NCBI RefSeq assembly: GCF_021390595.1
Contig: NZ_JAJEJR010000003.1
Span: 1-64,000, forward strand
Source: Paraburkholderia sp. HP33-1
Lineage (GTDB): Bacteria > Pseudomonadota > Gammaproteobacteria > Burkholderiales > Burkholderiaceae
Direction of reading: 5' to 3'
Length of the DNA: 64,000 nt
The notes under the pieces were generated by a model. The model ran no database searches. It was given only the letters and a program-made list of their open reading frames with translations, and was not told the origin of the DNA. Position 1 is the stretch's first letter, and each line of letters opens with the position of its first letter. A program made the translations under genes and the position numbers. Positions 49,957-64,000 of this stretch are shown piece after piece.

Positions 49957-50102
49957 CACATTGATCTCTGATTAATCCGGTTCTCATGCGCGGTTGCGCG
50001 TGGGTGAATGCCGCTATTCAGTCTTGTTGTTGTAACTTATATAACGACATCGACGCACGCCAACTTACAAAAAAACAGCCTGCTACGACTGCGTCACCGT
50101 TG

Positions 50103-50315
50103 CTACCCTTCCTTGCCGGGTGGAAACACCTGCCACGTGCCGTCATCATGATGGAAGAAGAACAGCCCGACTGGACCTTGCGGCCGCTGCGCCTCGACAA
50201 GGATGTAACGCCTGTGGCTCGCGTCCCGGTGGCCGAATCGGGTGAGCCGGACGGACGTCGCAGGCATCAGCCATTTTTCAACCGATGAACGCAGGGTCTT
50301 CTTTGCCGTCATCAT
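50103..50315 (-). CDS. Hypothetical small basic protein
   Basis: 70 residues from the ATG at 50315, which is preceded by the strong site GGAGGTG; a second ATG follows directly. Reads MMTAKKTLRSSVEKWLMPAT, SVRLTRFGHRDASHRRYILV, then GLFFFHHDDGTWQVFPP. The basic first half and aromatic C-terminal half suggest a folded small protein. The frame is open further 5' but without coding character. Function unknown. Confidence 0.6.
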   Translation of the reverse strand: MMTAKKTLRSSVEKWLMPATSVRLTRFGHRDASHRRYILVEAQRPQGPVGLFFFHHDDGTWQVFPPGKEG

Positions 50316-50508
50316 GCGCACCTCCTGCAGTCTGTGGGCATCTTCGCGTCGATCCGCCGCATTCACGTCGATGTACCTGTGCATCCGGGAGTACGGGCGC
50401 TGCGCGCCCGGTGCTGAAACCACTTCAGGCAACCCGGACGGCCACTGCCAGCGAAGCTGGCGCGTGGCTCGTCCATGACTTTGACCGCGTCCGGTGGCGA
50501 CGAAGCGA

Positions 50509-51084
50509 TTACTCGTCGCTGGTTTCGACCGGCGCCGCGAGTTGTCGAACGCGCCTGGTGGAACTCGACGCCGCCACGCTGATATCGGTCTCCGCACTCG
50601 CGCCCGCCTGCTTCACGGCCTTCGTCGCAGTGTCATAGGCCGTATTCGCCGTCTCGATGAGCGTCGTGATGAACGTCTTCCATGCCGTCACAGCGGTTTC
50701 GCTTCCTGCGGGTGCAGTTTTCGCCAGGTTTTCGGCGTAGAGCTGCGCATCGTGTTGGTACTTCTTGAGCTGCGTTTCCGCAACCGCCAGAAATTCCGCT
50801 CGGGTGCCCGATGCAATTTCGTAAACCTGGCGCCAATAGGACTGTGCCTTTTCGATCGCAGGTTGTGCCTGGCTTGCCTGTTGCGCGATAAACGCGTGCG
50901 GCGCGCCCGCCTCAAACGCCCTCACCAAGGCGCCCTGACTTTCCGCGAGACCGGACTTCGCGGCTTGCAGAGTCAGCCCGGTGAGCTTCTCGACTGCATT
51001 GACGGTTTTGTTCAGGAAGTCGAACGTTGTATCGACATTCGCTTTCTGTACAGCGACGATTTGTTCCGGGGTAATACTGTTCAT
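50509..51084 (-). CDS. Phasin family protein (PHB granule)
   Basis: 191 residues from the ATG at 51084 with GGAG 7 bases upstream. Begins NSITPEQIVAVQKANVDTTF and continues DFLNKTVNAVEKLTGLTLQA, KSGLAESQGALVRA, typical of the Burkholderia/Cupriavidus phasin family (PhaP). All-helical, amphipathic; coats polyhydroxybutyrate granules. The C-terminal tail (TDISVAASSSTRRVRQLAAP) is variable. Monocistronic by context. Confidence 0.92.
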   Translation of the reverse strand: MNSITPEQIVAVQKANVDTTFDFLNKTVNAVEKLTGLTLQAAKSGLAESQGALVRAFEAGAPHAFIAQQASQAQPAIEKAQSYWRQVYEIASGTRAEFLAVAETQLKKYQHDAQLYAENLAKTAPAGSETAVTAWKTFITTLIETANTAYDTATKAVKQAGASAETDISVAASSSTRRVRQLAAPVETSDE

Positions 51085-51550
51085 CACTAGCTCCATGGAA
51101 GATGCGGAATCGGCGTCTTTGAGCCGCATGCACAGAACATGGCTGTCAGCCACGAATAGTGCGGAACGGATCATTTGATGCGACGCAGCAATTTCATTCT
51201 AGGGTGGAGTGATCAAATGTCAATGACATAGCGGCTTGCATCGCGCGCGGCGGCAGCTGACAACGCGGAAAGCCTTTCTGTAAAAGGATGAACGACGTTA
51301 TCAGTGAAAACCCTAGACCTTCGGAAAGGCCTAATCTTCAGAAAATTCAGGGTTAGCGCGACCTTGTGCAACGCGGCAAATCCTATAGAGTCATCCTCTT
51401 TCGACGTGCCGATTCAAAAGCGATGCAAAAGTGTGCGGATGCGCACATTCGGTCACGCGGCTGTCATGCCCGACCAGTAATGTCTCGCCGCGGAGTGAAC
51501 AACGGGCCGTTGAAATATCTCTGAGAAAATAAAACTGAGAGATCCGAGGA
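51085..51550. other. Divergent intergenic region of phasin and XRE regulator genes
   Basis: 466 bases without a gene. Contains the 13-bp perfect palindrome ATGTCA-A-TGACAT at 51217-51229, which lies in a plausible promoter position for the phasin gene, and an AACCCT/AGGGTT pair around 51307-51355. Short frames here show no family features. Confidence 0.4.
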
Positions 51551-51862
51551 ATGAATCTGCATTTGCAACATATTGGCCATCTCGAGCGTAGCGTCGAGGA
51601 CGACCGCCTGAGGCGCGCGTTCGCCGCGCGCCTTGACAGGGCATTCAAGCGAGCCCGAATCAGTTCAGCGCACGCAGCGAAGTGGTTAGGCGTAAGCGAA
51701 TACGACGTGCAGTATTGGCGCAGCGGAATTACAGTGCCTCCGCTCAATGCGTGTACCCGTCTCGCCGCCGCTTTCGATCTCGACATTCACTGGCTCTGCA
51801 CGGGGCAGACCCCCGACGTCCAGCGAGACTCCCTGCGAGCGTCCAGTTCGCCGGGGATTTAA
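51551..51862 (+). CDS. XRE family helix-turn-helix protein
   Basis: 103 residues. Helix-turn-helix of the Cro/CI type: RLDRAFKRARISSAHAAKWL, GVSEYDVQYWRSGITVPPLN, ACTRLAAAFDLDIHWLCTGQ. The C-terminal tail is short and unstructured. GAGGA directly before the ATG. Likely a small DNA-binding regulator; targets unknown, with the neighbouring phasin or hemerythrin genes as possible candidates. Confidence 0.82.
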   Translation: MNLHLQHIGHLERSVEDDRLRRAFAARLDRAFKRARISSAHAAKWLGVSEYDVQYWRSGITVPPLNACTRLAAAFDLDIHWLCTGQTPDVQRDSLRASSSPGI

Positions 51863-52120
51863 CACCAACGCGCGTCACGGTAACCGAGGAAATCCGTGCG
51901 GTTCCCCTCGGGCGATCTGGCGTCTCGCACGTCGGACCGTAGAACGCACGCTGTGTTTGCTAAAAACGCACTTCGCGCGTGGACGCGAAGTGGCGGCCGT
52001 ATGGTTCAAAAATGACTACGCGAAGCTCGGGCAAGCGTCGTCGCTCGACATTAAAAGTTCGTTGCTCGAGGTATTCGCCCGAGCAGCGTGTCCGTGCGTT
52101 CGTTTAAACGGTGATTTTTC

Positions 52121-52702
52121 TTATTGAATCGTCCCGGAGACCGTACTGAAGATCAACGAGTACAAACGGTCCAATTCCCCTTGAATCTCGCTGCCGCTGA
52201 ACGGATCGTGATTTTCGCCGAACACCTCGTCCAGTTCCATCCAGTCGGCCGCGGTCAGAAACTGCAACGCGGCCGGTAAAATCACTTCCTCTTCCAGCCG
52301 CCTGTGATGGCTGTAAAACGCCGCGTATTCTCCAACCAAGGCCCGCAGTGCCGGCGCCTCGGCAGATCCGCTCAGTTCATATCGGGTCAGCGCGCGTTCA
52401 AGATCACGTACCCGCGCTTCGCCTGCTACATGCTGCGCCTCCAGCTCTTCGATGACGTCGTCCAGTTCGTCCGTGCGCGTTCGCAAGCGCGCGAGCAGAT
52501 ATTTGTCTTCCTTGGGATGATGAATCTGCTCCGGATATTCCCGAATGTAGTAAAGCATGGCCCGCATCACCATCGGTTCGGGCGCATGCCCGCCTTCCGA
52601 CAATGACTCGACATAACGGGCCATGCCATTGACCACCGCCGAAAGCTGCTGATGTTCGCGCACAATGGTCTGTACCGCCCGGCGCGCCGTTGGGTATTGC
52701 AT
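52121..52702 (-). CDS. Hemerythrin domain-containing protein
   Basis: 193 residues from the ATG at 52702 (AGGAG 8 bases upstream). Four-helix bundle with di-iron ligand candidates H17 (REHQQL), H61/H62 and E65 (HHPKED), H91 (EAQHV), H132/H133 (SHHRRLEEE) and E137/E138. Such bacterial cytoplasmic hemerythrins bind O2 or NO or respond to oxidative stress. Encoded downstream of a small conserved gene on the same strand. Confidence 0.9.
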   Translation of the reverse strand: MQYPTARRAVQTIVREHQQLSAVVNGMARYVESLSEGGHAPEPMVMRAMLYYIREYPEQIHHPKEDKYLLARLRTRTDELDDVIEELEAQHVAGEARVRDLERALTRYELSGSAEAPALRALVGEYAAFYSHHRRLEEEVILPAALQFLTAADWMELDEVFGENHDPFSGSEIQGELDRLYSLIFSTVSGTIQ

Positions 52703-52749
52703 GTGATCGCTCCTGAACGCCAAAGCTCCCGGTTCTGCACACCCGGGAA

Positions 52750-52947
52750 CTAGTGAACCCTCCCGACCGATCTCAACACCGAGCGGCCTTGCGCAGTCAG
52801 CCGCCCATGCGCATATCCCGACGTGAGCTGTTCCAGCAAAACAAGTTGGCGCTCACACAGCGCGTCAAGATCGCCAGGATCGAAATTTTCCGAACTCGGG
52901 TTTGTCTCGAGCAGCATGAGCGTTGCGATCTCATGTGGACTGAGCAT
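52750..52947 (-). CDS. Hypothetical small protein upstream of hemerythrin gene
   Basis: 65 residues from the ATG at 52947 (GGAG upstream). Reads MLSPHEIATLMLLETNPSSE, FDPGDLDALCERQLVLLEQL and RLTAQGRSVLRSVGR, which looks like a small winged-helix-like helical protein. I recall similar small proteins in Burkholderia but cannot name the family. The spacing to the hemerythrin gene (47 bp) suggests co-transcription. Confidence 0.6.
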   Translation of the reverse strand: MLSPHEIATLMLLETNPSSENFDPGDLDALCERQLVLLEQLTSGYAHGRLTAQGRSVLRSVGRVH

Positions 52948-53005
52948 CGTCGTCTCCGTTGGTCTGATGTTCCATGCATCATGGTCCTGCTCGAAGGATA
53001 GATGC

Positions 53006-53749
53006 TCATCCAAACCTGTCGACGCGCATTTTGTCGCATACCTGAAAGCCCCGATTCAACCGTTCGATAGCAACGATATGACTGAATGCCGTGCGGAACG
53101 TCTCGTCGATACTGCGCTCCGCATCCAGCGCGACCACGCCGTTGACCTCGAACACGGCGCGATAGGCCGCCACCTGACGCATCAGAAAGCGCATCGGCGG
53201 CGGCTGGTCGTTCTCGTCGTTCCTTGCCCGCACGCGTCGGTGTGAAGTCGCGCCAGAAACGTTCAGGCCAAAGGCGACGTCGGGACGCAGCAGATGGCCA
53301 GCGATGCTGTGGAGCACCGGTGCAGTCTCGGCGGGATCGGAGCGCGTACCGATTTCAGCCTGAGACGTGTACACGTAGCGGTCGCAAAAGACGACGTCAC
53401 CGCGTTCCAGTGCTGGGATCACCGTGTCGGTCATATGCTGGAAGAGGTCCCCCATGATGGACAGCAGAATGCCGAGCATGTCGACGCGCCGTGCGCTTCC
53501 ATCGGGTCCGGAACCAGAATTCGAGGTATGCCAGTGGCTGTCGACCAATTGCCGGAACACCGCATCTTTCCGGATCCGGCGGGTCGGCGTAAACGTCGTC
53601 ACGCAGTTGAGCCCCGCACGCGTGCACGCGCTTTCGAGCCTTGCCATCAGCGAAGATTTCCCCGCTCCATCCACACCGCACAACGTCACGAGGACGCCCG
53701 GATAATCGTGCGGTTTGAGCTTGAGCGCTTCGAAGACACTGTCCGACAT
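53006..53749 (-). CDS. Thymidylate-kinase-like P-loop protein
   Basis: 247 residues. Walker A is TLCGVDGAGKSSLMARLES (GKS at 30-32), and the DRY-type motif VVFCDRYVYTSQ resembles dTMP kinases. Longer than a housekeeping Tmk, and the lid (TSHRRVRARNDENDQPPPMR) and C-terminus differ. Its ATG follows the radical SAM fusion stop by 9 bp with GAGGTG inside the gap, so it is translated with it. It probably phosphorylates a nucleotide or a small molecule of the pathway. Role inferred from operon position only. Confidence 0.78.
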   Translation of the reverse strand: MSDSVFEALKLKPHDYPGVLVTLCGVDGAGKSSLMARLESACTRAGLNCVTTFTPTRRIRKDAVFRQLVDSHWHTSNSGSGPDGSARRVDMLGILLSIMGDLFQHMTDTVIPALERGDVVFCDRYVYTSQAEIGTRSDPAETAPVLHSIAGHLLRPDVAFGLNVSGATSHRRVRARNDENDQPPPMRFLMRQVAAYRAVFEVNGVVALDAERSIDETFRTAFSHIVAIERLNRGFQVCDKMRVDRFG

Positions 53750-53758
53750 GAGATCACC

Positions 53759-56700
53759 TCAGACCATGGCTTCGCGAGGCTCCGCGAGCATCTCGTCATG
53801 CGCCTCGATCGGCGCGAGGACCGCCGTGAAGTGCTTGAGCATTGCCGGTGCAGAGACGATGCGCATTCCGCGAATCGCATCGCGTCGTTGGTAGACGCGG
53901 ATCAACGCAGCGGCAACCACTGCGAGGTGGCTATCGGTGTAGACGCGGCGAGGAACGGCCAGCCTCAGCAGTTCCAGCCTCGGGGGGCTGGCGGTGCCCG
54001 TCGACGGTTCTTCTTTCAGGAACGCCAGTGAGCCAAGACCGACAGCGCGAACCCCGCCCTCGAGATAAAGCTCGGCAGCCAGCGCCTCGGCCGGGAACTC
54101 CGAGCGCGGCAGGTGCGGGAGGAAGGCGGCCGCATCGACATACACCGCATGTCCGCCGGTCGGCCTCAGGATCGGAACGCCGCCGGCCAGCAGTCGGTCC
54201 CCTAGCCGTTCGACCTGCCGCACGCGGTGCTGAAGGTATTCGTCGTCGACCATTTCGCGCAGACCGATCGCGAGCGCCTCGAGATCGCGGCCGGCCATCC
54301 CTCCGTAGGTGACGAAGCCCTCGTGCAGCACGAGGAGCGGCACGACCTGCTCGTAGAGCGTCCTCGACCGTGTCGCGAGCAAGCCGCCGATGTTGACTAG
54401 CGCATCCTTCTTGCAACTGAACGTGCAGCCCTCGGCATAGGAAAACTGCTCCTTGAGAATGTCCGCTACCGACCGGTTCGCATAGCCGCTTTCGCGCTGC
54501 TGGATGAAGTAGGCATTCTCCGCGCAGCGCGCTGCATCGAAGTAGACCGGAATCGCAAACTCGTCGGCCAACGCCTTCACCGCGCGCAGGTTCGCCATCG
54601 ATACCGGCTGGCCGCCGCCCGCGTTGTTGGTCAGCGAGACCATGATCAGCGGAACGTTGTCGCGCCCTTCGCTCTCGATCACGTTGCGCAGCTTCTGCAC
54701 ATCCACGTCGCCCTTGAACGGGTGCTCGACAGCGGGTTGGTAGCCGATTTCGGCGACGCACGGTATCGCGGTCCCGCCGGCAATCGATACGTGTGCCTCG
54801 GTCGAATCGAACGGCGCGTTGAACGGTACCACCTGTCCCGGCCGCACGAGGGTCCGAAACAGGAAGTGCTCGGCCGGCCGCCCCTGATGGGTCGGCAAGA
54901 CGTACTCGAAGCCGAGCATGTCCCGCACGGCCTGCCTCAACTTCGTAAAACTGCGGGAACCGGCATACGACTCATCGCCGGTCATGATGCCCGCCCACTG
55001 GTTCGCGCTCATCGCGGAGGTGCCGCTGTCCGTCATCAGATCGATGTAGACGTCGTCCGCTTCGAGGTGAAAGACGTTGTACCCGGCAGCGGCAAGCCGC
55101 GCCTGCCGTTGCTCACGGTCGATCAGCCTGATCGGCTCGACCATCTTGATCCGGTACGGCTCAGGCGGGCCGTCATCTGAAAGCATGGACTGCTCCTGCG
55201 TTGAAAGTACGCGGGCCATCGGGTGATTGGCCGCTTCGGGCATCGCACGCCGCATCGGGCCTGATTCGATCGGCAAAACCGCGATCGGCGCCCACTCCGG
55301 CTCGCCGCCATGCGCGGACGCGCAGTGACCGCCGTGACCGTTGTGGGCCGCTTCGAAGCGTTTCTCGATCCGGTTCAGAATCGACCAGTACGCGCCCCGC
55401 TCGCCTTGCGCGATCGCTTCGACCAGCGCGTCGTTCGCGTTGTAGTTGAAGAGACTCGCATTGGCCCCGAAGAATCGCCGGTCATTGCCGATCAGATCGG
55501 CAATGAATTTCTGCGGGTCCGGGCCCAGTGAGGTCGGCAGATAGAACACCGGATGCAGAAGATCGTCGTTGCCTTCGATCCGGCCGTGAAGATTCGGATT
55601 CCCGACGTTCAGGCCTTCGCGGCGGATCATCTGTTCGAGTTCGGTTCCCGGGAAAATCCTGAGCCCGACCGTCACCGAAACGCGCTCGGGATCGACCCGT
55701 TTGATGAACTCGATCGTTTCGCGCACAGTTTCCTGCGTCTCACCCGGCGCGCCGAACAACAGTTCGATGATGTGCTCGAGGCCGTGGCGCTTCGCCGTAT
55801 TGACCGCATGTTCGATGTCGGGGGCGCCAAAGGTCCGACGGAGTATCTTCAGCATCGTTTCGCTGGCGCTGTCGACGCCGAAGTTCATGCCGACACAACC
55901 GGCTGCTTTCATCGCGGCCGCCAGCTCATCGGGAAACGGCCGCGGCATACCATACGCATACCACTGGATTTTGCCGGCGAGCCCGTGCCGGATGATGGCC
56001 GCGCACAGCGCGAGAGGATGCGCGACGCTCAGATTGAATTCCGAGTCGTTGATGTGAAAGACGTTGACCCCGCGCTCGACCAGCGATGCCATCTCGGCGA
56101 CGACATCATCGGGTTCGCGCATGCGCACCGTGCGGCCTTTGATCAGCGGCTCGACGCAATAGATACAGGAGCGATTGCAGCCGCGCTTCGTCTCGATGCC
56201 GATCTGGCCGCCTTTGGCGAAATAGTGCGGGTTGTTGACCAGTTCACGTTTGTGGGGCCCAAGTTTGGCCAGCGGACCGCATGCGTTCGGGGCGAGCGGC
56301 GTAGCGTGCACGCCGGCCGCATCGCGGTACACAACGCCGGGTATGTGCGTGAAACTTCCGCCTTCTTCGAGGCAGGTCAGGAGTTCGGGAAAGCTGAATT
56401 CGCCTTCCCTGACGATGCCGAAGTCGGCACCGAGATAGGCGAGCAGTTTGTCCGGCATCACCGAGTAACCCGCGCCGCCCATCACGACCGGGACCGGGCG
56501 CGCACGGCGAAGCAACGCGACGATGTCCCTGATTCTATCGAGGAAGCTGTAGCCGCTCGAAAAGTAGACGTCGTCGGTATTTCGCAGCGTCACACCCCAG
56601 TAATCCGGCGCGGCCGTGCGGCAGTGCGCGGCAATGGCCGCCTCGCAGTCGTCCGAGAAGCACAGGTCGAGCAGATTGAGCTCGAACCCCGCTCGCTCCA

Positions 56701-56785
56701 TCGGTGCCGACAGGTAGTCGAACGCAATCGGCGCAATCGCCGGTTTGATCTGGTTCGTGTTGACGAAGGTGACGCGCTTGGCCAT
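53759..56785 (-). CDS. Radical SAM enzyme fused to tryptophanase/tyrosine phenol-lyase-type PLP lyase
   Basis: 1008 residues. Residues about 1-140 form a B12-binding-type Rossmann fold but lack the DxHxxG cobalt-ligand motif. Residues about 190-430 are a radical SAM core with cluster ligands C203, C207, C210 (RGCNRSCIYC), then VDSASETMLKIL and LLFGAPGETQETV. A linker of about 70 residues follows. Residues about 545-985 are a complete beta-eliminating lyase: DLMTDSGTSAMSANQWAGIM, VLPTHQGRPAEHFLF, the PLP-Asp region VYFDAARCAEN and the PLP lysine, probably K793, in FSCKKDALVNIGG. The lysine motif deviates from tryptophanase (F for M, C for G). One polypeptide therefore joins radical chemistry to PLP-dependent cleavage of an aromatic amino acid. 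Product unknown. Confidence 0.9.
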   Translation of the reverse strand: MAKRVTFVNTNQIKPAIAPIAFDYLSAPMERAGFELNLLDLCFSDDCEAAIAAHCRTAAPDYWGVTLRNTDDVYFSSGYSFLDRIRDIVALLRRARPVPVVMGGAGYSVMPDKLLAYLGADFGIVREGEFSFPELLTCLEEGGSFTHIPGVVYRDAAGVHATPLAPNACGPLAKLGPHKRELVNNPHYFAKGGQIGIETKRGCNRSCIYCVEPLIKGRTVRMREPDDVVAEMASLVERGVNVFHINDSEFNLSVAHPLALCAAIIRHGLAGKIQWYAYGMPRPFPDELAAAMKAAGCVGMNFGVDSASETMLKILRRTFGAPDIEHAVNTAKRHGLEHIIELLFGAPGETQETVRETIEFIKRVDPERVSVTVGLRIFPGTELEQMIRREGLNVGNPNLHGRIEGNDDLLHPVFYLPTSLGPDPQKFIADLIGNDRRFFGANASLFNYNANDALVEAIAQGERGAYWSILNRIEKRFEAAHNGHGGHCASAHGGEPEWAPIAVLPIESGPMRRAMPEAANHPMARVLSTQEQSMLSDDGPPEPYRIKMVEPIRLIDREQRQARLAAAGYNVFHLEADDVYIDLMTDSGTSAMSANQWAGIMTGDESYAGSRSFTKLRQAVRDMLGFEYVLPTHQGRPAEHFLFRTLVRPGQVVPFNAPFDSTEAHVSIAGGTAIPCVAEIGYQPAVEHPFKGDVDVQKLRNVIESEGRDNVPLIMVSLTNNAGGGQPVSMANLRAVKALADEFAIPVYFDAARCAENAYFIQQRESGYANRSVADILKEQFSYAEGCTFSCKKDALVNIGGLLATRSRTLYEQVVPLLVLHEGFVTYGGMAGRDLEALAIGLREMVDDEYLQHRVRQVERLGDRLLAGGVPILRPTGGHAVYVDAAAFLPHLPRSEFPAEALAAELYLEGGVRAVGLGSLAFLKEEPSTGTASPPRLELLRLAVPRRVYTDSHLAVVAAALIRVYQRRDAIRGMRIVSAPAMLKHFTAVLAPIEAHDEMLAEPREAMV

Positions 56786-56834
56786 GTTCTATCGGCTCCG
56801 GTTCAAGGGTTCGCGAGGGTTCGCTAAAACGCGG

Positions 56835-57944
56835 CTAGACGGCGACGTCGATGGACATTTTCTGGCCCGCGCGGGCCACCGTCGTCTCGCTCATGAACTC
56901 ACTGAAGCCATGCATCATCACCGCTGCAAGGTGCTGCGCCTTTTCCTCGCAATCGGAGAATGCATAGAAGCCCGGGCCAGCGCTGCTCATCCCCGCATAC
57001 ACCGCGCCTTCGCGTTGCATCGTTTCGTCGAATTCACGCATCACGTCGGTCCGGAAAATGCCCTCGAGCACCTTCATGTTGCTCATGCTGTTGAGCTCCC
57101 AACCGTGCTTCAGAAACGCGAACAGGTCGTTGCGATGCAGTGCCGGCCGCAATTTCATTTCGATGAAGTTGCGCCACGCGATCCCGTAGTGCTTCTGCCA
57201 CTCGACAAAATGCGTCGGCACGAAGCCCGCCTCGGTGGTGCCGGACATGTCCGCGCCTTCGCCGTGGGCACGCAGCGCTTCGGTCGATAGCGTGTCGTAA
57301 TTGCCGACGGCGGTCGTCACCCACAGGTTTTCCGAACTCAGATTGCCGAGGAAACGGCCGTTGCCGTGCTTCTCGTCGACCCAGACCAGCCCGCCGAAAA
57401 ACAGGCACGCTTCGCCGACGCCGGTCTCGAGGCCGAAATACACGTGCTCGTCATCCTTCGCGTTCTCGACGTAGTTGCGGGTGATCATTTCCCACATGTC
57501 GTGCGGCGAAAACGGTGAGCCGAACAAGGCGTTCAGGCCCGCGAGCGTCGCCGTGTTGAACGACACGTTCGAGCCGAAGCCGCTGTGCTTGTGCTGGATG
57601 CTGCGCACCCGATCGACACGGATGTCGTCGCGTGCGTAGCCAACGGTCCGCTTGAACAACTCGAGCATGTGTCGCCCGCTCGGCACGTCGCAGCCGCCCT
57701 CGCCGCTCGTCGTCTTCGTGACGGTGATCCGGTGTCCGACCGTGCTCGTCGACACGCCAAGTCCGCCGCCGCCGAAGCCAGGCGCCATCTGCATAAAGTC
57801 GAATACGGCGAAGTGAAGGCGCCCTGGCACCGAGACCTCGGCACGGTCATAGCTCGGTACCGCGTCGCGCTCCCAGTGCGGCAACACAGTCAGATTCGCT
57901 CCCGGCAGGAACTGCCCCGCTTTTGCCTTCCACGCCTGATTCAT
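56835..57944 (-). CDS. GHMP-superfamily protein, beta-RFAP-synthase-like
   Basis: 369 residues from the ATG at 57944 (GGTGGAG upstream); the frame is open 55 codons further 5' without conserved sequence. EVSVPGRLHFAVFDFMQM and GFGGGGLGVS resemble beta-ribofuranosylaminobenzene 5'-phosphate synthase, which joins an aromatic acid to PRPP in methanopterin synthesis. HKHSGFGSNVSFNTATLAGL is GHMP motif 2 and MSSAGPGFYAFSD motif 3. It could instead be a small-molecule kinase. First gene of the minus-strand arm, 49 bp before the radical SAM fusion. Superfamily confident; activity uncertain. Confidence 0.75.
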   Translation of the reverse strand: MNQAWKAKAGQFLPGANLTVLPHWERDAVPSYDRAEVSVPGRLHFAVFDFMQMAPGFGGGGLGVSTSTVGHRITVTKTTSGEGGCDVPSGRHMLELFKRTVGYARDDIRVDRVRSIQHKHSGFGSNVSFNTATLAGLNALFGSPFSPHDMWEMITRNYVENAKDDEHVYFGLETGVGEACLFFGGLVWVDEKHGNGRFLGNLSSENLWVTTAVGNYDTLSTEALRAHGEGADMSGTTEAGFVPTHFVEWQKHYGIAWRNFIEMKLRPALHRNDLFAFLKHGWELNSMSNMKVLEGIFRTDVMREFDETMQREGAVYAGMSSAGPGFYAFSDCEEKAQHLAAVMMHGFSEFMSETTVARAGQKMSIDVAV

Positions 57945-58538
57945 TACTCCACCCCCATCCTCTTGAACATTCCCAAGCCAAACGCTTCGCGGACGCGGTG
58001 CCCCGCCGCCATCGATTGTTCGCGCTCCTCGCGCACGGTTCGTGCCAGGCATTCTTTTGCAGCACGCAGTGAGTCCTCGTCCGATGCAATGACGCAAGCA
58101 GACAGCCATATTTCAAAGGGCAGCGCGATACATCCGCACGTTTAGACGTTCGGACGTTGGTGTGCGAACGGGCTCGGTATCAAACGTCCCACAGTCGACC
58201 CGCGACCAACAGATTCCCTCCACCTGTTGGCCCAGCACCGACATCGAGACAGCGGCGACGGTCTCCCCGAACGTGGCTCGGGACATCGCAGACCCCATCC
58301 GAATCCGCGCGATACCCGCGCCCGCCTTTTGAGATCCGGGCACTCCATTCCGTCATTGCATGGTTAGAGGACGACCTCCGTGCCGCCGACGGATGACTGG
58401 CATGAACCCTGCAAAAAGCATCCGCAGGCAGTAGCCGTCTCAGCACGATTCCTCTTCGCCGTATCCGAACCCGAATCGAGTGGCATCGGTCGATCGCCAT
58501 TCGTGACTCGCCCTCATGAGCTTTGCCCGGAGCCGCAC
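57945..58538. promoter_or_regulatory. Shared divergent control region of the biosynthetic cluster
   Basis: 594 bases between the GHMP gene (minus) and the coq4-like gene (plus). Contains three ACGTT copies spaced exactly 8 bases (58138, 58146, 58154). Frames extending into it from both genes lack conserved sequence. No gene seen. Confidence 0.5.
58138..58158. repeat. Triple ACGTT direct repeat, 8-bp period
   Basis: ACGTTNNN three times in a row at 58138, 58146 and 58154 within the divergent promoter region. Possible regulator or polymerase-contact site; may be chance. Confidence 0.35.
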
Positions 58539-59309
58539 ATGACAGCAACCCTGAAGAACAACGCGATGGCGCGACGCCACATCGACTGGCCGCGCGCCTT
58601 GCGGGCGATCAAGGCGCTGAGGGCGAACGTCGACGATATTCAGCATGCCTATGAAGTGATGATCGCGCTCGACGGCGGCCAGATGGAGACGATGTACCAG
58701 CGTTTTCTCAGGGAGCCGGACGCCGGCGCGCTGCTTTCCGAGCAGCCGTCACTGCTCGCCACGCTCGCCGACTCCGACACGCTGCGCCGCTTGCCGCCAG
58801 GCTCGTTCGGCCGCGCTTACATGGCGATGATGGAGCACAGCGGCTACAGCGCCGATGGTCTGCTCCAGGCGAGCCGGCTGGCCGCGGGCCTCGAAGAAAT
58901 CCTCCCCGGCCCGGACCGTCAGTGGTTCATCGAGCGCAGCGGCTGCATTCATGACCTGCTGCATGTGCTGACGGGCTATGGTCAGGACTGGGCTGGCGAG
59001 ACCTCGCTTCTCGCCTTCGACTGCGGCCTCGAGCCGATGCGTGCGCGCATCGTGGGTCTGCTCGGCACCGCGCTGACTGCGCCCTGGTGGCCGAACTTCT
59101 GGGTCCATCGGTTTCTGCGCCGCGCGTGGCTGCGTGGCAAGCACGCCCGCATTCCCCTTTCGTTCCCGTGGGAAGAAGCATTGCAGTGGCCACTCGAAAC
59201 CGTCCGCTCCGAGCTCGCGATCGAGCCGCTCGCGATCGCCCACCCACACGGCATTCTGGCCGGCGGCCAGACGCTGCCGTGGCGCTACGCCGCGTCGAGC
59301 AACGCGTGA
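58539..59309 (+). CDS. Coq4 family protein
   Basis: 256 residues from the ATG at 58539 (GGAG 7 bases upstream). The zinc motif HDxxHx11E is exact: H138, D139, H142, E154 in CIHDLLHVLTGYGQDWAGE. PPGSFGRAYMAMMEHSGYSA also matches the family. Eukaryotic COQ4 acts at C1 of the ubiquinone ring (decarboxylation/hydroxylation); bacterial relatives in gene clusters are not characterised. Followed by the ACP gene after 17 bp, so it begins the plus-strand arm. Suggests a prenylated or quinone-like aromatic intermediate. Confidence 0.88.
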   Translation: MTATLKNNAMARRHIDWPRALRAIKALRANVDDIQHAYEVMIALDGGQMETMYQRFLREPDAGALLSEQPSLLATLADSDTLRRLPPGSFGRAYMAMMEHSGYSADGLLQASRLAAGLEEILPGPDRQWFIERSGCIHDLLHVLTGYGQDWAGETSLLAFDCGLEPMRARIVGLLGTALTAPWWPNFWVHRFLRRAWLRGKHARIPLSFPWEEALQWPLETVRSELAIEPLAIAHPHGILAGGQTLPWRYAASSNA

Positions 59310-59326
59310 ACGGAAAGGAACCCAGC

Positions 59327-59656
59327 ATGGCCACCGCACCGAAAAATGCGTCGACGCGAAACAGCGTATTCGAAGTCGTACGCACGCAGCTTCTTGGCGT
59401 CTGCCGCGAGCATCATCGCAACTTCGATGCCGAGATTCGCCTCGAGAGTTCGCTCATCGCCGATCTTGGACTCGATTCGCTGTCGCTCGTCGAAGCGGTG
59501 GTCGCAATCGAGCAGGCGTTCGGCATCGAGCGCCTGCCGCTGGAAGCGTTGAGCGAAGGATCCGGCGAAGCGCATTTCACAGTCGGATCGTTGGTCGACC
59601 TGTGCATCCGCCACACCGCAGTCCGTGTAGCCGCCGATGAGGGGATGCGCACATGA
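59327..59656 (+). CDS. Acyl carrier protein
   Basis: 109 residues from the ATG at 59327 (AAGGAA upstream). The phosphopantetheine site is S51 in DLGLDSLSLVEAVVAIEQAF. An N-terminal extension of about 15 residues and a C-terminal tail make it longer than fatty-acid ACP. Its stop overlaps the UbiA gene start (ATGA). It likely carries an acyl or aryl intermediate for the downstream thioester-reductase-like enzyme. No adenylation or ketosynthase gene is visible in the window. Confidence 0.88.
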   Translation: MATAPKNASTRNSVFEVVRTQLLGVCREHHRNFDAEIRLESSLIADLGLDSLSLVEAVVAIEQAFGIERLPLEALSEGSGEAHFTVGSLVDLCIRHTAVRVAADEGMRT

Positions 59657-60570
59657 GCCCGCGCCTTTCGCTGGCCACCTCGGGTGCCAGGCGTGACCGG
59701 CTTGCCGTTGCGGCAGACGCTTTGCGCAACACGCTCGGCCGCATTCCGCTGGCGTGCGAGGCGGTGCCGATTGCCGGCGCGTTTGTCTGCTCGCTTCTGC
59801 TGTACGGACGCATAGCCGGCGTCGCCCTCGAACCGGGCTGGCGTGTATTGGCCGGCCTTGCGTCATTCTTCCTGCTGTTCGTCCAGCTGCGCCTGATCGA
59901 CGACCTCGACGACCTCGACCGCGACTATCCCGCCGGGCACGCGCTGGCGGCGCGACGCGCGGCACTGCGCGTACGCCTCCTCGCCAGCCTCGCGGCAATC
60001 GTCGTCCTGCTCGTCGCGCTGAACGCCGGAATGAAGCACGCGTGGACAGCCGCCGCTGCCGCCACCGCCCTGGCCTTCGCCGCCCCGTTCGTTTTCAAGC
60101 GGCTGTTTCCGACCCGGCCGTTACTCTGCTTACCCGCTTTCGAGGGCGCGCCATTCGCCATCTTCACTTACAGCTATTTCTTCTGGCGCGACATGGCTGA
60201 GCGCGATCTGAGCGTCTACGTCGTCGTGTGCGTAGCGGGTTCGATGTGGACCGGCTACGAATTCTGGAAGTTCTCGCGCAAGGTGGGCACCACCGCGCTG
60301 CAGCCCTATCACCTCACGGCGCGCGGAATCCGGGTCGCGCTGAATGCCCTCCTGATTCTCTCGCTCGGCATCAACGTAGCGCTTGCGCGCCTGGCGGGCC
60401 TGTCGCAAACGTACTTGATCTATGCCGCGTTGCTGCCGCTCGTGTGGCTCGTCTTGCTCAACGTTTCCTGGCCAGGCCCCGCGAGCAGACCGGGCCGGCC
60501 ACGCTGGGCCGGCACCCGCTTCGTCGTCGCCGTCGAGCTCGGACTGCTGGCCGCACTGCTCCTCAAATGA
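59653..60570 (+). CDS. UbiA-family prenyltransferase-like membrane protein
   Basis: 305 residues with about 8-9 hydrophobic helices. The first Asp-rich motif is intact (RLIDDLDDLDRDYPAG, an N/DDxxDxxxD type). The second motif, usually DxxxD, reads YEFWKFSRKVG and has lost its aspartates, and the YxxxK lysine motif is seen as PFVFKRLFP. So binding of the diphosphate is plausible, but the acceptor chemistry may differ from UbiA. Sits between the ACP and reductase genes. Likely transfers an isoprenoid or similar group in the inner membrane. Confidence 0.78.
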   Translation: MSPRLSLATSGARRDRLAVAADALRNTLGRIPLACEAVPIAGAFVCSLLLYGRIAGVALEPGWRVLAGLASFFLLFVQLRLIDDLDDLDRDYPAGHALAARRAALRVRLLASLAAIVVLLVALNAGMKHAWTAAAAATALAFAAPFVFKRLFPTRPLLCLPAFEGAPFAIFTYSYFFWRDMAERDLSVYVVVCVAGSMWTGYEFWKFSRKVGTTALQPYHLTARGIRVALNALLILSLGINVALARLAGLSQTYLIYAALLPLVWLVLLNVSWPGPASRPGRPRWAGTRFVVAVELGLLAALLLK

Positions 60571-60596
60571 CACGCAACCCTGGATCGTCACTCACT

Positions 60597-61679
60597 ATGA
60601 ACAAGCACGTTCTCGTCACCGGTGCACGAGGTCTGCTGGGCGCTGAAGTGATCGCCCGGCTCACGGCGATGGGGTATCCGGTCGTCGCCTTTCTGCGCTC
60701 CGATGGACCCGTGGTCCGCAACGACGGCACACCGCTCGCGACAACGGCTTACCGCGGCCACACGCCAGCCGCCGGAACTTTCGCATGTGTGCACGGCGAC
60801 GTCGCCGAAACCCGCCTTGGACTCGATCCGGACACCTACGAGGCACTGCGCGCGACCACGTCCGCGATCGTCCACTGTGCCGCGCTAACGAGCTTTGGAC
60901 GCAAGCCCGAGGTCTACGAGGCGATCAACTTTCGCGGCACGCAGCGCATCGTCGAGTTCGCGCAACGTAGCGGCGACGCGCCGATTCCGCTGCTCTATGT
61001 GAGCACCGCGTACGTCTGCGGCGAGCGCCCCGGCGTGTTCAGCGAGGACGATCTCGAACTTGGCCAGCGTCTGGGCAACCCGTACGAGCAGAGCAAGTAC
61101 CGCGCGGAACAGTCGGTGCGAGCGGCAATGCGCAGCGGTCTGCCGGCGGCGGTCCTGCGCCCGTCGATCATCGTCGGCGACTCGGCGAGCGGCGTGATCC
61201 GCAAGTTCGACACGCTCTACACCGTCGTGCGCCTGACGGCCGCGGGCATCGTGCGCACGATGCCCGGCGACTACGGCGCGACGCTGAACATCGTGCCGAT
61301 CGACTGGGTCGCGGACTGCGTGGCCGAGGCGCTGGCGAAGTTCCCACTGGTGCGCGGACGCACGCTGCATCTGACGTCGGGCACGCCCACGACGCTGCGC
61401 GAAATCAACGACGTATGCGCAGAGTTTCCCTCGTTTCACGTGCCTCGCTATGTGCCGCGGCATGTCTTCGACGCCGCCGCGATGAAGCCGCTCGAGCGGC
61501 GTTACTACGACGAGGTCGTCAAGCTCTACGAGTCGTACCTGACGCGCCAGGTGCGCTTTGCGCGAGACGCGACCGCCGCCATCCTGCCCGCCCTGCCTCG
61601 CGCGACCGGCAAAACGCTGCTGCGCAGGATCTTTCGTTATGGGATCGCGGCGGGTTACTTCGTGCCGCGCACGGCTTGA
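60597..61679 (+). CDS. Extended SDR, thioester-reductase-like
   Basis: 360 residues from the ATG at 60597; an in-frame ATG at 60567 that overlaps the UbiA stop (ATGA) is the alternative, adding ten residues. NAD(P) motif HVLVTGARGLLGAEVIARL, VHCAALTSFG, and catalytic pair Y163/K167 in NPYEQSKYRAEQ. AINFRGTQRIVEFAQRSGD and PAAVLRPSIIVGDSASG match the NAD_binding_4 family, which reduces ACP- or CoA-bound acyl thioesters to aldehydes or alcohols. Consistent with an ACP-tethered substrate from the gene just upstream. Confidence 0.82.
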   Translation: MNKHVLVTGARGLLGAEVIARLTAMGYPVVAFLRSDGPVVRNDGTPLATTAYRGHTPAAGTFACVHGDVAETRLGLDPDTYEALRATTSAIVHCAALTSFGRKPEVYEAINFRGTQRIVEFAQRSGDAPIPLLYVSTAYVCGERPGVFSEDDLELGQRLGNPYEQSKYRAEQSVRAAMRSGLPAAVLRPSIIVGDSASGVIRKFDTLYTVVRLTAAGIVRTMPGDYGATLNIVPIDWVADCVAEALAKFPLVRGRTLHLTSGTPTTLREINDVCAEFPSFHVPRYVPRHVFDAAAMKPLERRYYDEVVKLYESYLTRQVRFARDATAAILPALPRATGKTLLRRIFRYGIAAGYFVPRTA

Positions 61680-61697
61680 CGTTCAGGAAACCTCACC

Positions 61698-63359
61698 ATG
61701 TTGATGACTGATCCGATGCTCGCCGACCTCTGGCAAAAATCGCGTGCCACGCTAGGCGCCCAGTTCGAACAGCGAGCACCGAGCGCCGTCTTTCTCGAAG
61801 GCTCGATCGCCGAAGGCTTCGGTAATGAGCGCTCCGACGTCGACTTCGTCGCGATCGTCGATAGCGGGATTGAGCCGGCCACGATGCCGTACATCCTGTT
61901 CATCGACGGCCGCCGCGTCGAAGTAAGGTTGCTGAGTCCGGCGCGCCTGCGCCGCGAACTCGCGCAAGTTCGCGAAGCGCTCGGCAAAGGCCGTCGCGCG
62001 GTCGCGCGGCTGTCGTGGAATCTGCTCGAGCGTTGCCAGCGCTTTATCGGCGCGCTGCCGATCGACAACCCGGCGTTGATCGAGACGCTGCAAGCGGAGC
62101 TCGGCCGCGAGGCGCTCTGCGAGGCGGTAGCGCTGTGGTTCGAGGATTTCGCGCGTCAGACCGGCCGCTATGCGGTGGCGATGTTCGCGCTCGGCGAGCC
62201 CGACTACGCCCGCGCCTGGATCGGGACCGCCGCGTTTCACGCGGCCAAGAGTCACGTGGCGCGCCTCGGCGAGTGCTACATGAGCCCGAAATGGCTGTCG
62301 CTGCAACTCGAACGCGCAGCCGTCGATGCAGGGCGCGCCGGCCGTCTCTGGAACCTGCTGCACGCGCCGCGCGAGCATGGCACCGAAAGCGGGCTGCTCG
62401 CGGCGGGCGTCGCGCTGATCCGCGAGTTCGGCGTCAACGGTGTGAGCCTCGTGGCCGACAACGTGCTGATCGGCCCTGGCAAAGACACGACGACCTGGCA
62501 GATCGGCGAACGGGTCCATGTGCTGCGAGGCAGCGACGTGTTTGCGCTCGACGACGAAGCCGCCCAGGCCTGGCGGTCGATCACCTTCGACGCGCCATGC
62601 ACGGCGATCGCCAGCCGTGGCGACGCGCAGGCGGCCAGCCGGCGCCGCGCGCTGATCGCCGACTTCAGCCGGCTCGGCCTCGTGAGCCTGCGCTGGAAGG
62701 GCGGCGGAGAAATCCACGCCCGTCAGCAGGCGACGTCGACGCCGGTGTCCCGTGCGCCCCTGATCTCAATCGACGGTGCGCGTCTCGCGGCCGGCCGCGC
62801 GAGCGGTGCCCAGTTGCTGCCGATGCCCGCCGGGCGCTTCGCCGAAGCGGGGCTCGAGATGATCTGGGCCAACATTGGCCTCGAGAACGCGCGTGAGGAC
62901 GCCCAAGGCGCACTCCAGCGCGGCCAATGGAAGGTGCTCGAATACGCGCTGCAACGGATGATGCAGACCGCCTGCATGGTCACGCTCGGGGCGCACGGTG
63001 TGACGCCGCAGTCGACGATGGAAGAAGCGACGCTCGACGCGATCCGGCTGCTGCCGCTCGATGCGGTGCTGATCGACGGCATCCGCGAACTCGAACAGTG
63101 TTCGATCGGATCGGCACGCGATGCGCAGCGCTACGTCGCGCTGGCCGATGAGCTCGCGCAGCGTCTGCGCAACCTCGGCGGCGACCCGCAATTTCCAGCG
63201 AGCTTCGATACGGCGTCGGGTTGGCGCGGCACGATCCACGCCGCCTACGACTGGATCAACCTCGGCGCGCATCTGCACGCGCGCTTCCCGCAGACCGCTC
63301 ACGGCGGACGCGGTACCGCCGAGGAAGCGAGAGATCTGCTCGCTTCGTCGAGCACCTGA
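61698..63359 (+). CDS. Nucleotidyltransferase-domain protein
   Basis: 553 residues. The N-terminal 100 residues form a polymerase-beta-type nucleotidyltransferase domain: VFLEGSIAEGFGNERSDVDF with GS at 35-36 and catalytic DxD at 47-49. The long helical C-terminal part (about 100-553) has no domain I can name. Close relatives with this architecture are not known to me. It could transfer a nucleotide to an antibiotic-like product or act on a protein. 18 bp after the SDR gene. Activity unknown. Confidence 0.7.
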   Translation: MLMTDPMLADLWQKSRATLGAQFEQRAPSAVFLEGSIAEGFGNERSDVDFVAIVDSGIEPATMPYILFIDGRRVEVRLLSPARLRRELAQVREALGKGRRAVARLSWNLLERCQRFIGALPIDNPALIETLQAELGREALCEAVALWFEDFARQTGRYAVAMFALGEPDYARAWIGTAAFHAAKSHVARLGECYMSPKWLSLQLERAAVDAGRAGRLWNLLHAPREHGTESGLLAAGVALIREFGVNGVSLVADNVLIGPGKDTTTWQIGERVHVLRGSDVFALDDEAAQAWRSITFDAPCTAIASRGDAQAASRRRALIADFSRLGLVSLRWKGGGEIHARQQATSTPVSRAPLISIDGARLAAGRASGAQLLPMPAGRFAEAGLEMIWANIGLENAREDAQGALQRGQWKVLEYALQRMMQTACMVTLGAHGVTPQSTMEEATLDAIRLLPLDAVLIDGIRELEQCSIGSARDAQRYVALADELAQRLRNLGGDPQFPASFDTASGWRGTIHAAYDWINLGAHLHARFPQTAHGGRGTAEEARDLLASSST

Positions 63360-63374
63360 CCAACGGGGACCGCA

Positions 63375-64000
63375 ATGAAGTTAGACACCATTACGCCTGC
63401 ACGCGGGCAATTCGAAGCGGCAGGAAGCTGCGCGCCACACGAGGTCCACCCCGCGAGCGGCAGCGCCGCCCCGGCAGCATCGTCACGCGTGATCCTGACC
63501 GCGGCGAGTCCGGCCGACACCATCGAGCGGCTCGCCGGCAATAAGGGCAGATCGCTCCATCGGCTCGCGAACCTCGGCGTAGCGGTGCCGCACTGGGCGA
63601 TCCTCGGTACCGACTGCTTCGCGGACTTCCGGCGCGATGCGGGCCTCGATCAAACCATCGCCGCGCTGCTGCGCGACTTCACGCCCGCGAATGCCGCCGC
63701 GATCGCGAGCACGATCCGCGAGGCCGTGCTGACTTGTGACATGAGCGCCGCGTTGCGCGCCGACATCGCACGCGCGTACGACAGCATCGGAGACGGGCCG
63801 CTCGCGGTGCGCTCGTCCGGTGTCGAAGAAGACAGCGCGAGCTTCTCGTTTGCAGGCCAGTTCGACACGTTCCTCGACGTCCGCGGTCTCGACTCGACGC
63901 TCGAACATGTGCGCCGGTGCTGGGCTTCTGCCTGGTCCGAGCGCTCGCTACGCTACCGGCATCAGCACGGACTCGATATCGCCGGCGCCGGCATGGCCGT
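63375..64000 (+). CDS. PEP-synthase/PPDK-like protein, N-terminal part (cut by window edge)
   Basis: Reads 208 codons from the ATG at 63375 to the edge; GGGGA upstream. IERLAGNKGRSLHRLANLGV, VPHWAILGTDCF and LAVRSSGVEEDSASFSFAGQ, FDTFLDV match the PEP/pyruvate-binding (ATP-grasp) domain of pyruvate phosphate dikinase, PEP synthase and rifampicin phosphotransferase. The swivelling His domain would be beyond the edge, so the class cannot be settled. Last visible gene of the plus-strand arm; could phosphorylate a pathway intermediate. Confidence 0.8.
   Translation, partial: MKLDTITPARGQFEAAGSCAPHEVHPASGSAAPAASSRVILTAASPADTIERLAGNKGRSLHRLANLGVAVPHWAILGTDCFADFRRDAGLDQTIAALLRDFTPANAAAIASTIREAVLTCDMSAALRADIARAYDSIGDGPLAVRSSGVEEDSASFSFAGQFDTFLDVRGLDSTLEHVRRCWASAWSERSLRYRHQHGLDIAGAGMA

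What the first reader, a model, noticed from the sequence alone, without database searches (positions are those of the whole stretch)
53759..56785. Single protein joins a radical SAM enzyme to a tryptophanase/tyrosine phenol-lyase domain
Seen: radical SAM cysteines C203/C207/C210, a degenerate B12-type Rossmann domain without DxHxxG, and a full PLP lyase domain with the catalytic lysine (probably K793) in SCKKDALVNIGG. Known: tryptophanase and tyrosine phenol-lyase release indole or phenol from the amino acid; radical SAM lyases such as ThiH and NosL also cleave Tyr or Trp side chains. Inference: the fusion couples the two, for example making an aromatic fragment in one domain and modifying it in the other. 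I know no described enzyme of this architecture.
Basis: partly seen in the sequence, partly recalled or inferred. Interest (0 to 1): 0.92.

Follow-up and report, generated by a model that had tools for sequence, protein, structure and literature searches.

The report
Tryptophan methylase fused to tryptophan lyase
A soil bacterium has joined two enzymes that its relatives mostly make separately, one that probably adds a methyl group to tryptophan and one that probably then cuts off the ring, which would make 2-methylindole, a little-known building block, for an unknown natural product.

Summary
Both halves can be named more sharply. The N-terminal half is closest to the cobalamin-dependent tryptophan C2-methylase TsrM: about 36% identity to the solved enzyme, with its R69, E236, E273 and Y308 all kept; 0 of 24 other B12/radical-SAM relatives keep all four. 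It is probably a non-radical methylase, not a ThiH/NosL-type lyase, though it scores below the TsrM family cut-off. The C-terminal half has tryptophan indole-lyase selectivity residues (4 of 5 identical, Leu for Ile), not tyrosine phenol-lyase ones (0 of 5). The fusion is real but local: 3 of 8 Paraburkholderia genomes fused, 5 of 8 two adjacent genes. The pairing recurs: 3 of 7 actinomycete TsrM loci have a tryptophanase within 1 kb, in other gene orders and from another lyase clade; 0 of 73 other lyase loci hold a relative of the methylase half. Best reading: Trp to 2-methyl-Trp to 2-methylindole, pyruvate and ammonia, feeding an uncharacterised cluster whose marker gene is in the same 7 genus genomes (of 141). 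Activity is untested.

The parts
53759..56785 (-). Fused gene: TsrM-like B12/radical-SAM methylase + tryptophan indole-lyase, 1008 aa
56381..56749 (-). B12-binding domain (residues 13-135); includes R68 (= TsrM R69)
   Evidence: Pfam PF02310; residue mapping
55703..56194 (-). Radical SAM core (residues 198-361): C203/C207/C210, E212 (= E236), E249 (= E273), Y278 (= Y308)
   Evidence: Pfam PF04055; alignment to 6wte
55169..55348 (-). Linker (about residues 480-539); holds the relic of the lyase gene's own start (M511/M515)
   Evidence: DNA alignment of 7 loci; junctions
55253..55265 (-). Fusion point near codon 508/509: in split genomes L011-L014 the methylase stop codon lies here, overlapping or about ten bases before the lyase start
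53804..55168 (-). Tryptophan indole-lyase domain (residues 540-994): K793 (PLP), Y607, D750, R753, R941; selectivity D660, F824, V915, L917, H985
56835..57944 (-). Gene upstream on the same strand, GHMP/beta-RFAP-synthase-like (369 aa from the conserved ATG; the ORF itself runs to 58109)
   Evidence: weak: 32.6 bits against a cut-off of 328, but in 6 of 6 orthologues scanned; alignment
53006..53749 (-). Gene downstream on the same strand, thymidylate-kinase-like
   Evidence: Pfam PF02223 53.1 bits; PDB thymidylate kinases, best E 3e-8
58380..59309 (+). Coq4-like gene, first of the divergent gene row (real start uncertain)
   Evidence: Pfam PF05019 60.5 bits
59087..59656 (+). Acyl carrier protein (real start probably about 59321)
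   Evidence: Pfam PF00550 28.7 bits; alignment starts at residue 79 in L013
59653..60570 (+). UbiA-like membrane protein (weak)
   Evidence: UbiA in 1 of 7 orthologues, E 8.7e-4, not in the window's own copy; DDLDDL-RDYP motif read by eye
60228..61679 (+). Thioester-reductase-like SDR (real start probably about 60588)
   Evidence: PF07993 148.4 bits; TIGR01746 121.8, below its cut-off of 213
61698..63359 (+). Nucleotidyltransferase-like protein, used as cluster marker
   Evidence: weak PF19464/PF01909, both below cut-off; in 7 of 141 genus genomes
63375..64000 (+). Start of PEP-synthase-like gene (runs on to G000:C3:66152); fatty acid desaturase, acyl-AMP-ligase-like, HlyD-type and outer-membrane efflux genes follow beyond the window

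Best explanation
The protein is a two-step enzyme on tryptophan. Step 1 (inferred): the N-terminal TsrM-like half uses SAM and cobalamin to methylate C2 of the tryptophan indole ring by a non-radical route. Step 2 (inferred): the C-terminal PLP half, a tryptophan indole-lyase, beta-eliminates 2-methyltryptophan to 2-methylindole, pyruvate and ammonia. In 5 of 8 genomes the two are adjacent, overlapping or nearly overlapping genes; in three they are one chain, which would guarantee equal amounts and may help pass the intermediate on. The 2-methylindole would feed the surrounding biosynthetic cluster. Shown: domains, catalytic and selectivity residues, gene pairing in separate lineages, co-occurrence with the cluster marker, mostly silent change. 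Not shown: any activity, the methylation site, the order of steps, the final product.
For: Radical-SAM half: best NCBIfam model for it is Trp 2-C-methyltransferase TIGR04428, 250.5 bits; best solved relative KsTsrM 6wte, 220.8 bits; R69, E236, E273 (roles) and Y308 all kept, and 0 of 24 other B12/radical-SAM relatives keep all four. Lyase half: of five residues that separate indole-lyase from phenol-lyase (PMC5805759, passages) it has D, F, V, Leu (for Ile), H and none of the phenol-lyase ones; K793, Y607, D750, R753, R941 kept. Pairing: Amycolatopsis AA4 tsrT (903 bits, over cut-off) with a tryptophanase 0.9 kb on, one opposite-strand gene between; 2 of 6 TsrM loci of a Streptomycetales-like order carry permease-lyase-TsrM with the last two abutting. 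The lyases of these pairs fall in a different clade from this one, so the pairing arose more than once or swapped its lyase. Control: 0 of 73 other lyase loci hold a match to the methylase half at E 1e-5 (43 of 73 with 2 kb or more on both sides; these are the best-scoring loci kept from 584). One cluster: the 553-aa marker is in 7 of 141 genus genomes, the same 7 handles that hold the methylase and lyase among 144.
Against: TIGR04428 score is only half its cut-off (250.5 against 500), a lipid-biosynthesis model is close (TIGR04072, 241), and both tryptophanase equivalog cut-offs are missed. Overall identity is higher to tyrosine phenol-lyase (48%) than to E. coli TnaA (41%). The closest methylase relative found outside Paraburkholderia (L130, 42%) has no lyase within the 19.5 kb held and has Asp for E236; 4 of 7 actinomycete TsrM loci over the cut-off have no lyase in the 16-20 kb held, so TsrM also serves other pathways. 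The query's closest lyases (L015-L019, about 60%) have no methylase nearby. Residue 916 is Gly where both reference lyases have Glu. E. coli making TsrM accumulates 2-methyltryptophan (PMC8896826, passages), so a tryptophanase-bearing cell need not cleave it all. No assay exists; the cluster product is unknown.
Confidence: 0.6

Rival explanations
1. Same two enzymes, reversed order: the lyase frees indole from Trp first and the TsrM-like half methylates free indole.
For: TsrM is promiscuous; it keeps some activity on compounds without the alpha-carboxylate (PMC4632189, passages). The end product is the same.
Against: Activity of TsrM with 3-methylindole or melatonin fell below 20%. Gene order does not decide: methylase first in Paraburkholderia, lyase first in the two Streptomycetales-like loci.
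Confidence: 0.12
2. The lyase runs in the synthetic direction: it joins an indole with pyruvate and ammonia (or exchanges the side chain) to make a methylated or otherwise altered tryptophan.
For: Tryptophanase is reversible (Watanabe and Snell, seen only as a reference title). The cluster has acyl-activating and carrier-protein genes.
Against: No indole source recognised in the genes examined; the Streptomycetales-like pairs carry an amino-acid permease, which fits uptake and breakdown.
Confidence: 0.1
3. One reading: radical cleavage of Tyr or Trp (ThiH/NosL-like) coupled to a tyrosine phenol-lyase-type step.
For: CX3CX2C and a PLP lyase of the Trp/Tyr family are present; the lyase is nearer to phenol-lyase in overall identity.
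Against: A cobalamin-binding domain is present; the best match is TsrM with its special residues; 0 of 5 phenol-lyase residues.
Confidence: 0.06
4. A B12/radical-SAM enzyme with another reaction or substrate (as TIGR04072 lipid or BzaD-type relatives), beside an ordinary tryptophanase; together they serve one cluster but not successive steps.
For: TIGR04072 scores 241 bits, almost as high as TIGR04428; the L130 relative stands without a lyase; the cluster has lipid genes.
Against: Four TsrM residues kept; independent TsrM+lyase pairs; fusion and overlap of the two reading frames.
Confidence: 0.12

Closest known systems
TsrM (thiostrepton Trp 2-C-methyltransferase; KsTsrM 6wte/6wtf)
   Same: B12-binding + radical-SAM order, CX3CX2C, R69, E236, E273, Y308, about 36% identity over 416 aligned positions of the printed stretches
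   Different: Below the TIGR04428 cut-off; about 500 aa before the linker; fused to, or beside, a lyase; proteobacterial
Tryptophan indole-lyase (tryptophanase, TnaA)
   Same: PLP residues; D, F, V, H selectivity residues; over the NF009709 subfamily cut-off (641 against 285)
   Different: Leu for Ile396, Gly for Glu395; 41% identity to E. coli TnaA; fused to a methylase
Tyrosine phenol-lyase
   Same: 48% identity, same family
   Different: None of its five distinguishing residues; below the TIGR02618 cut-off
   Same: TsrM over the family cut-off with a tryptophan-type lyase within 1 kb
   Different: Not fused; other gene orders; lyase of another clade; with an amino-acid permease in G1409 and G1527

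Membership tests
TsrM, Trp 2-C-methyltransferase (TIGR04428) | Curated family score (500 bits) | tested here: not met
   250.5 bits; L014's separate protein 262.3
TsrM, Trp 2-C-methyltransferase (TIGR04428) | CX3CX2C cluster motif | tested here: met
   C203/C207/C210
TsrM, Trp 2-C-methyltransferase (TIGR04428) | R69 under cobalamin, E236 bridging SAM and cobalamin, E273 on the cluster (roles from PMC8992657 and PMC9692996) | tested here: met
   R68, E212, E249; Y308 = Y278 is also kept, its role recalled only
TsrM, Trp 2-C-methyltransferase (TIGR04428) | Methylates Trp C2 without forming 5'-deoxyadenosine | not testable with these tools
   needs an assay
Tryptophan indole-lyase | Subfamily model NF009709 over cut-off | tested here: met
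   641.4 against 285
Tryptophan indole-lyase | TnaA equivalogs TIGR02617 and NF053783 over cut-off | tested here: not met
   493.9 against 825.8; 555.6 against 750
Tryptophan indole-lyase | PLP lysine | tested here: met
   K793 aligns with TPL K257 and TnaA K270
Tryptophan indole-lyase | D137/F304/V394/I396/H463 selectivity set (PMC5805759) | tested here: inconclusive
   4 of 5 identical (D660, F824, V915, H985), L917 for Ile396
Tyrosine phenol-lyase | T124/M288/M379/R381/F448 set | tested here: not met
   0 of 5
Tyrosine phenol-lyase | TIGR02618 over cut-off | tested here: not met
   584 against 720.7
ThiH/NosL side-chain lyases | Match to their family models | tested here: inconclusive
   None among the 25 of 39 NCBIfam rows shown; 14 rows not shown

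The most novel reading that the evidence does not exclude
A recurrent two-enzyme module (B12 tryptophan methylase + tryptophan lyase), here fused into one 2-methylindole synthase, supplies 2-methylindole as a dedicated building block. Its C2 is blocked, so its C3 would be condensed or ribosylated by the cluster's odd enzymes: the PEP-synthase-like protein, whose sub-cut-off relatives include the prodigiosin ligases RedH and PigC, could join it to a lipid aldehyde made by the acyl-AMP ligase, carrier protein, desaturase and thioester reductase; or the RFAP-synthase-like and thymidylate-kinase-like proteins could make a C-nucleotide of it. Either would be a new class of indole metabolite.
Probability: 0.22. 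Interest if true: 0.82.

Novelty: new variant of a known kind. Interest (0 to 1): 0.62.

Why it matters
TsrM is the known exception among radical-SAM enzymes, and the passages read here describe it as a step towards the quinaldic acid of thiostrepton. A TsrM-like enzyme physically joined to a tryptophan lyase would give this kind of enzyme a second destination, a predicted route to free 2-methylindole, and a single-chain system in which to test whether the intermediate is passed on. [quoted passage not shown] Fused and split species offer a natural comparison for a young fusion.

Tried and rejected
Fusion as sequencing artefact: rejected; three assemblies have the open frame, and the window and L009 share the same junction. 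Wide spread of the fusion: the ~2740-nt matches, mostly Bacteroidota, first looked like fusions but are two tandem lyase genes (26 of 73 loci). Direction and number of fusion events: the tree groups the three fused genomes against L011-L014 only weakly (59 concatenated, 59 lyase, 71 nt, 81 sdr), and the rsam tree contradicts it (90 for L010 with L012-L014); L010 is also 63 nt shorter than the window in this gene, so one or two fusions cannot be decided. Structure prediction of the GHMP/RFAP-like protein (mean pLDDT 29) and the UbiA-like protein (39.7) was too poor to use, so no fold search was run. PDB searches with the GHMP-like protein hit mainly designed ankyrin-repeat proteins over about 30 residues (phmmer E 6.5e-9; profile E 3.5e-5), which I discounted as a short look-alike stretch but cannot explain; the UbiA-like profile hit nothing. 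No Rfam match at gathering score in 50000-64000, so no cobalamin riboswitch seen there. Plasmid searches with the 5.1-kb locus DNA and the 553-, 424- and 305-aa proteins gave none; those with the PEP-synthase-like, SDR and Coq4-like proteins gave 314, 860 and 5 records, all under 60% identity. Searches of 399 order and 398 phylum genomes with the methylase half gave, besides the window itself, 1 and 27 genomes at 25-32% identity; 1 of 396 Actinomycetota with TIGR04428 at E 1e-45.
Full report
What is there. The ORF at 53759-56785 is on the minus strand, 1008 aa. Pfam finds B12-binding (13-135), Radical_SAM (198-361) and Beta_elim_lyase (582-959).

The methylase half. Among NCBIfam models the best for this half is Trp 2-C-methyltransferase, 250.5 bits, under its cut-off of 500; a lipid-biosynthesis B12/radical-SAM model is close behind at 241. 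In the PDB the best relative of this half is KsTsrM, 6wte, 220.8 bits. Two reviews (passages read) give TsrM's special residues: R69 under cobalamin, E273 on the unique iron of the cluster so that SAM does not bind there, and E236 between SAM and cobalamin. The query has R68, E249 and E212 there, and Y278 for Y308 (role of Y308 recalled, not read). All four are kept in the 6 named Paraburkholderia orthologues and in Amycolatopsis AA4 TsrT, and in the six TsrM proteins of a Streptomycetales-like order. L128 (= L130), from an unnamed actinobacterial genome, has Asp for E236. None of the 24 other B12/radical-SAM relatives has all four. The tree puts the query group with L128 and the TsrM proteins at 0.987 support. 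I infer a TsrM-like, probably non-radical methylase; formal membership fails on score.

The lyase half. Scores and identity lean both ways: 641 bits to the tryptophanase subfamily (cut-off 285), but under both TnaA equivalog cut-offs and under the phenol-lyase cut-off; 48% identity to the phenol-lyase of 2ez1 and 41% to E. coli TnaA. The residues decide for me. A paper on engineering TnaA lists five active-site positions that differ between the two enzymes (PMC5805759, passages). The query has D660, F824, V915, L917, H985: four as in TnaA, Leu for Ile at the fifth, none as in phenol-lyase. Another paper states that replacing Arg381 in phenol-lyase by Ile or Val, as found in tryptophan indole-lyases, hurt activity on Tyr but not on other substrates (PMC3870968, passages). 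The PLP lysine, Y607, D750, R753 and R941 are kept.

The fusion. Named relatives: P. translucens (L009) and P. monticola (L010) are fused; P. panacisoli, P. atlantica, P. tuberum and sp. UYCP14C have two genes. The genus search gave 7 of 144 genomes with the methylase half: 3 fused, 4 split, and 3 further genomes with a lyase only at 50-51%. One split genome, G159, is none of the named six (at most 95.8% to any over 1.77 kb), and UYCP14C is not among the seven, so in all 3 of 8 are fused and 5 of 8 split. In L011 and L013 the methylase stop and the first lyase ATG overlap (TGATG); in L012 and L014 the lyase starts about ten bases later, and in L014 the lyase frame has its own stop just before. 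In the window and L009 two bases are missing at this junction and the frame runs on; the linker still holds the relic lyase start. Both halves change mostly at silent sites in all six comparisons. So two genes is the commoner state, separate genes are also what the actinomycete pairs have, and the fusion looks like a young, local variant (inference). The trees do not settle one event or two.

The pairing elsewhere. The best plasmid hit of the methylase half is tsrT of Amycolatopsis sp. AA4, with an annotated tryptophanase as the second gene downstream, one opposite-strand gene between; that tsrT scores 903 bits, over the cut-off. A search of 391 genomes of an order centred on a large SsgA-bearing actinomycete found 6 with TsrM over the cut-off. 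In 2 of the 6 (L142, L143) a lyase ends within a few bases of the TsrM start, same strand, preceded by an amino-acid permease. Their lyases keep D, F and H; the V394/I396 positions are V/F and T/F. The other 4 have no lyase within the 16-20 kb held; L141 has a YcaO gene nearby, as thiopeptide clusters do (my inference), and L138-L140 a different set. So 3 of 7 actinomycete loci over the cut-off are paired. The actinomycete lyases form a clade (1.000) apart from the query's, which sits with lyases of Dehalococcoidia, another Chloroflexi, Spirochaetales and Atribacteria (0.996). As a control, 0 of 73 other lyase loci have a match to the methylase half at E 1e-5; 43 of 73 have 2 kb or more on both sides, and the 73 are the best-scoring part of 584 relatives. 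Against: the nearest outside methylase relative found (L130, 42%) has no lyase in 19.5 kb.

The cluster. Upstream on the same strand lies a GHMP/RFAP-synthase-like gene, downstream a thymidylate-kinase-like gene; divergently run Coq4-like, acyl carrier, UbiA-like, thioester-reductase-like, nucleotidyltransferase-like, PEP-synthase-like, desaturase, acyl-AMP-ligase-like and efflux genes. The seven genes tested match in 6 of 6 named relatives, and the 553-aa marker occurs in 7 of 141 genus genomes, the same 7 handles as. The PEP-synthase-like protein passes the cut-off of NF004881, named phosphoenolpyruvate synthase; its sub-cut-off relatives include RedH (384 bits) and PigC (336), but also rifamycin phosphotransferase (324) and other PEP synthase models. 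The product is unknown; the two routes in the novel case are guesses.

How it most likely works. Trp is methylated at C2, then 2-methyltryptophan is cleaved to 2-methylindole, pyruvate and ammonia. TsrM prefers the amino acid: 3-methylindole and melatonin gave under 20% activity (PMC4632189, passages), which favours methylation first. Against easy cleavage, E. coli making TsrM accumulates 2-methyltryptophan (PMC8896826, passages). A C1 or C2 methyl group inhibited hydroxylation and breakdown of indole under methanogenic conditions (PMC6221969, passage), so the product could be more lasting than indole (inference).

Is it in print? Searches of the held open-access library showed no listed paper on a TsrM-lyase fusion, on the pairing, or on enzymatic 2-methylindole formation; papers outside that library, and rows beyond those listed (12 of 5,166, 12 of 38), were not seen. 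None of the 12 listed holds the word 2-methylindole. PMC8992657, PMC13331322 and PMC8896826 do not contain 'tryptophanase'. PMC11015028 used TsrM and TnaA in E. coli as separate reactions on tryptophan; 'methylindole' does not occur in it.

Noticed in passing
L043, L047, L050 and 23 further loci: Two lyase genes in tandem in 26 of 73 lyase loci, mostly Bacteroidota; in L043 and L061 one copy has tryptophan-type residues and the other tyrosine-type (L061) or mostly tyrosine-type (L043) ones.
   Followed up: partly
L142:9151-13717, L143:5970-10907: Small permease-tryptophanase-TsrM gene sets in Streptomycetales-like genomes: a simpler setting in which to test 2-methylindole formation.
   Followed up: partly
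L138, L139, L140: TsrM (L138 is 95% identical to the printed KsTsrM stretches) beside an acyl-CoA-dehydrogenase-like and an ATP-grasp L-amino-acid-ligase-like gene (Pfam run on L138 only): a TsrM setting in which I recognised no thiopeptide gene.
   Followed up: no
window 56838-57944 (-): GHMP/RFAP-synthase-like protein, 95-98% identical in 5 other species, no plasmid relatives; its function may hold the key to the cluster.
   Followed up: partly
L151:523-3854: Roseinatronobacter plasmid: an annotated UbiA-family gene directly beside the best-ranked plasmid relative (35.8%) of the cluster's PEP-synthase-like protein.
   Followed up: no
L130:8376-9821: TsrM-like protein (42% to the query, Asp for E236) in a 38%-GC stretch of an unnamed actinobacterial genome without a lyase nearby: a sister group of unknown role.
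   Followed up: partly
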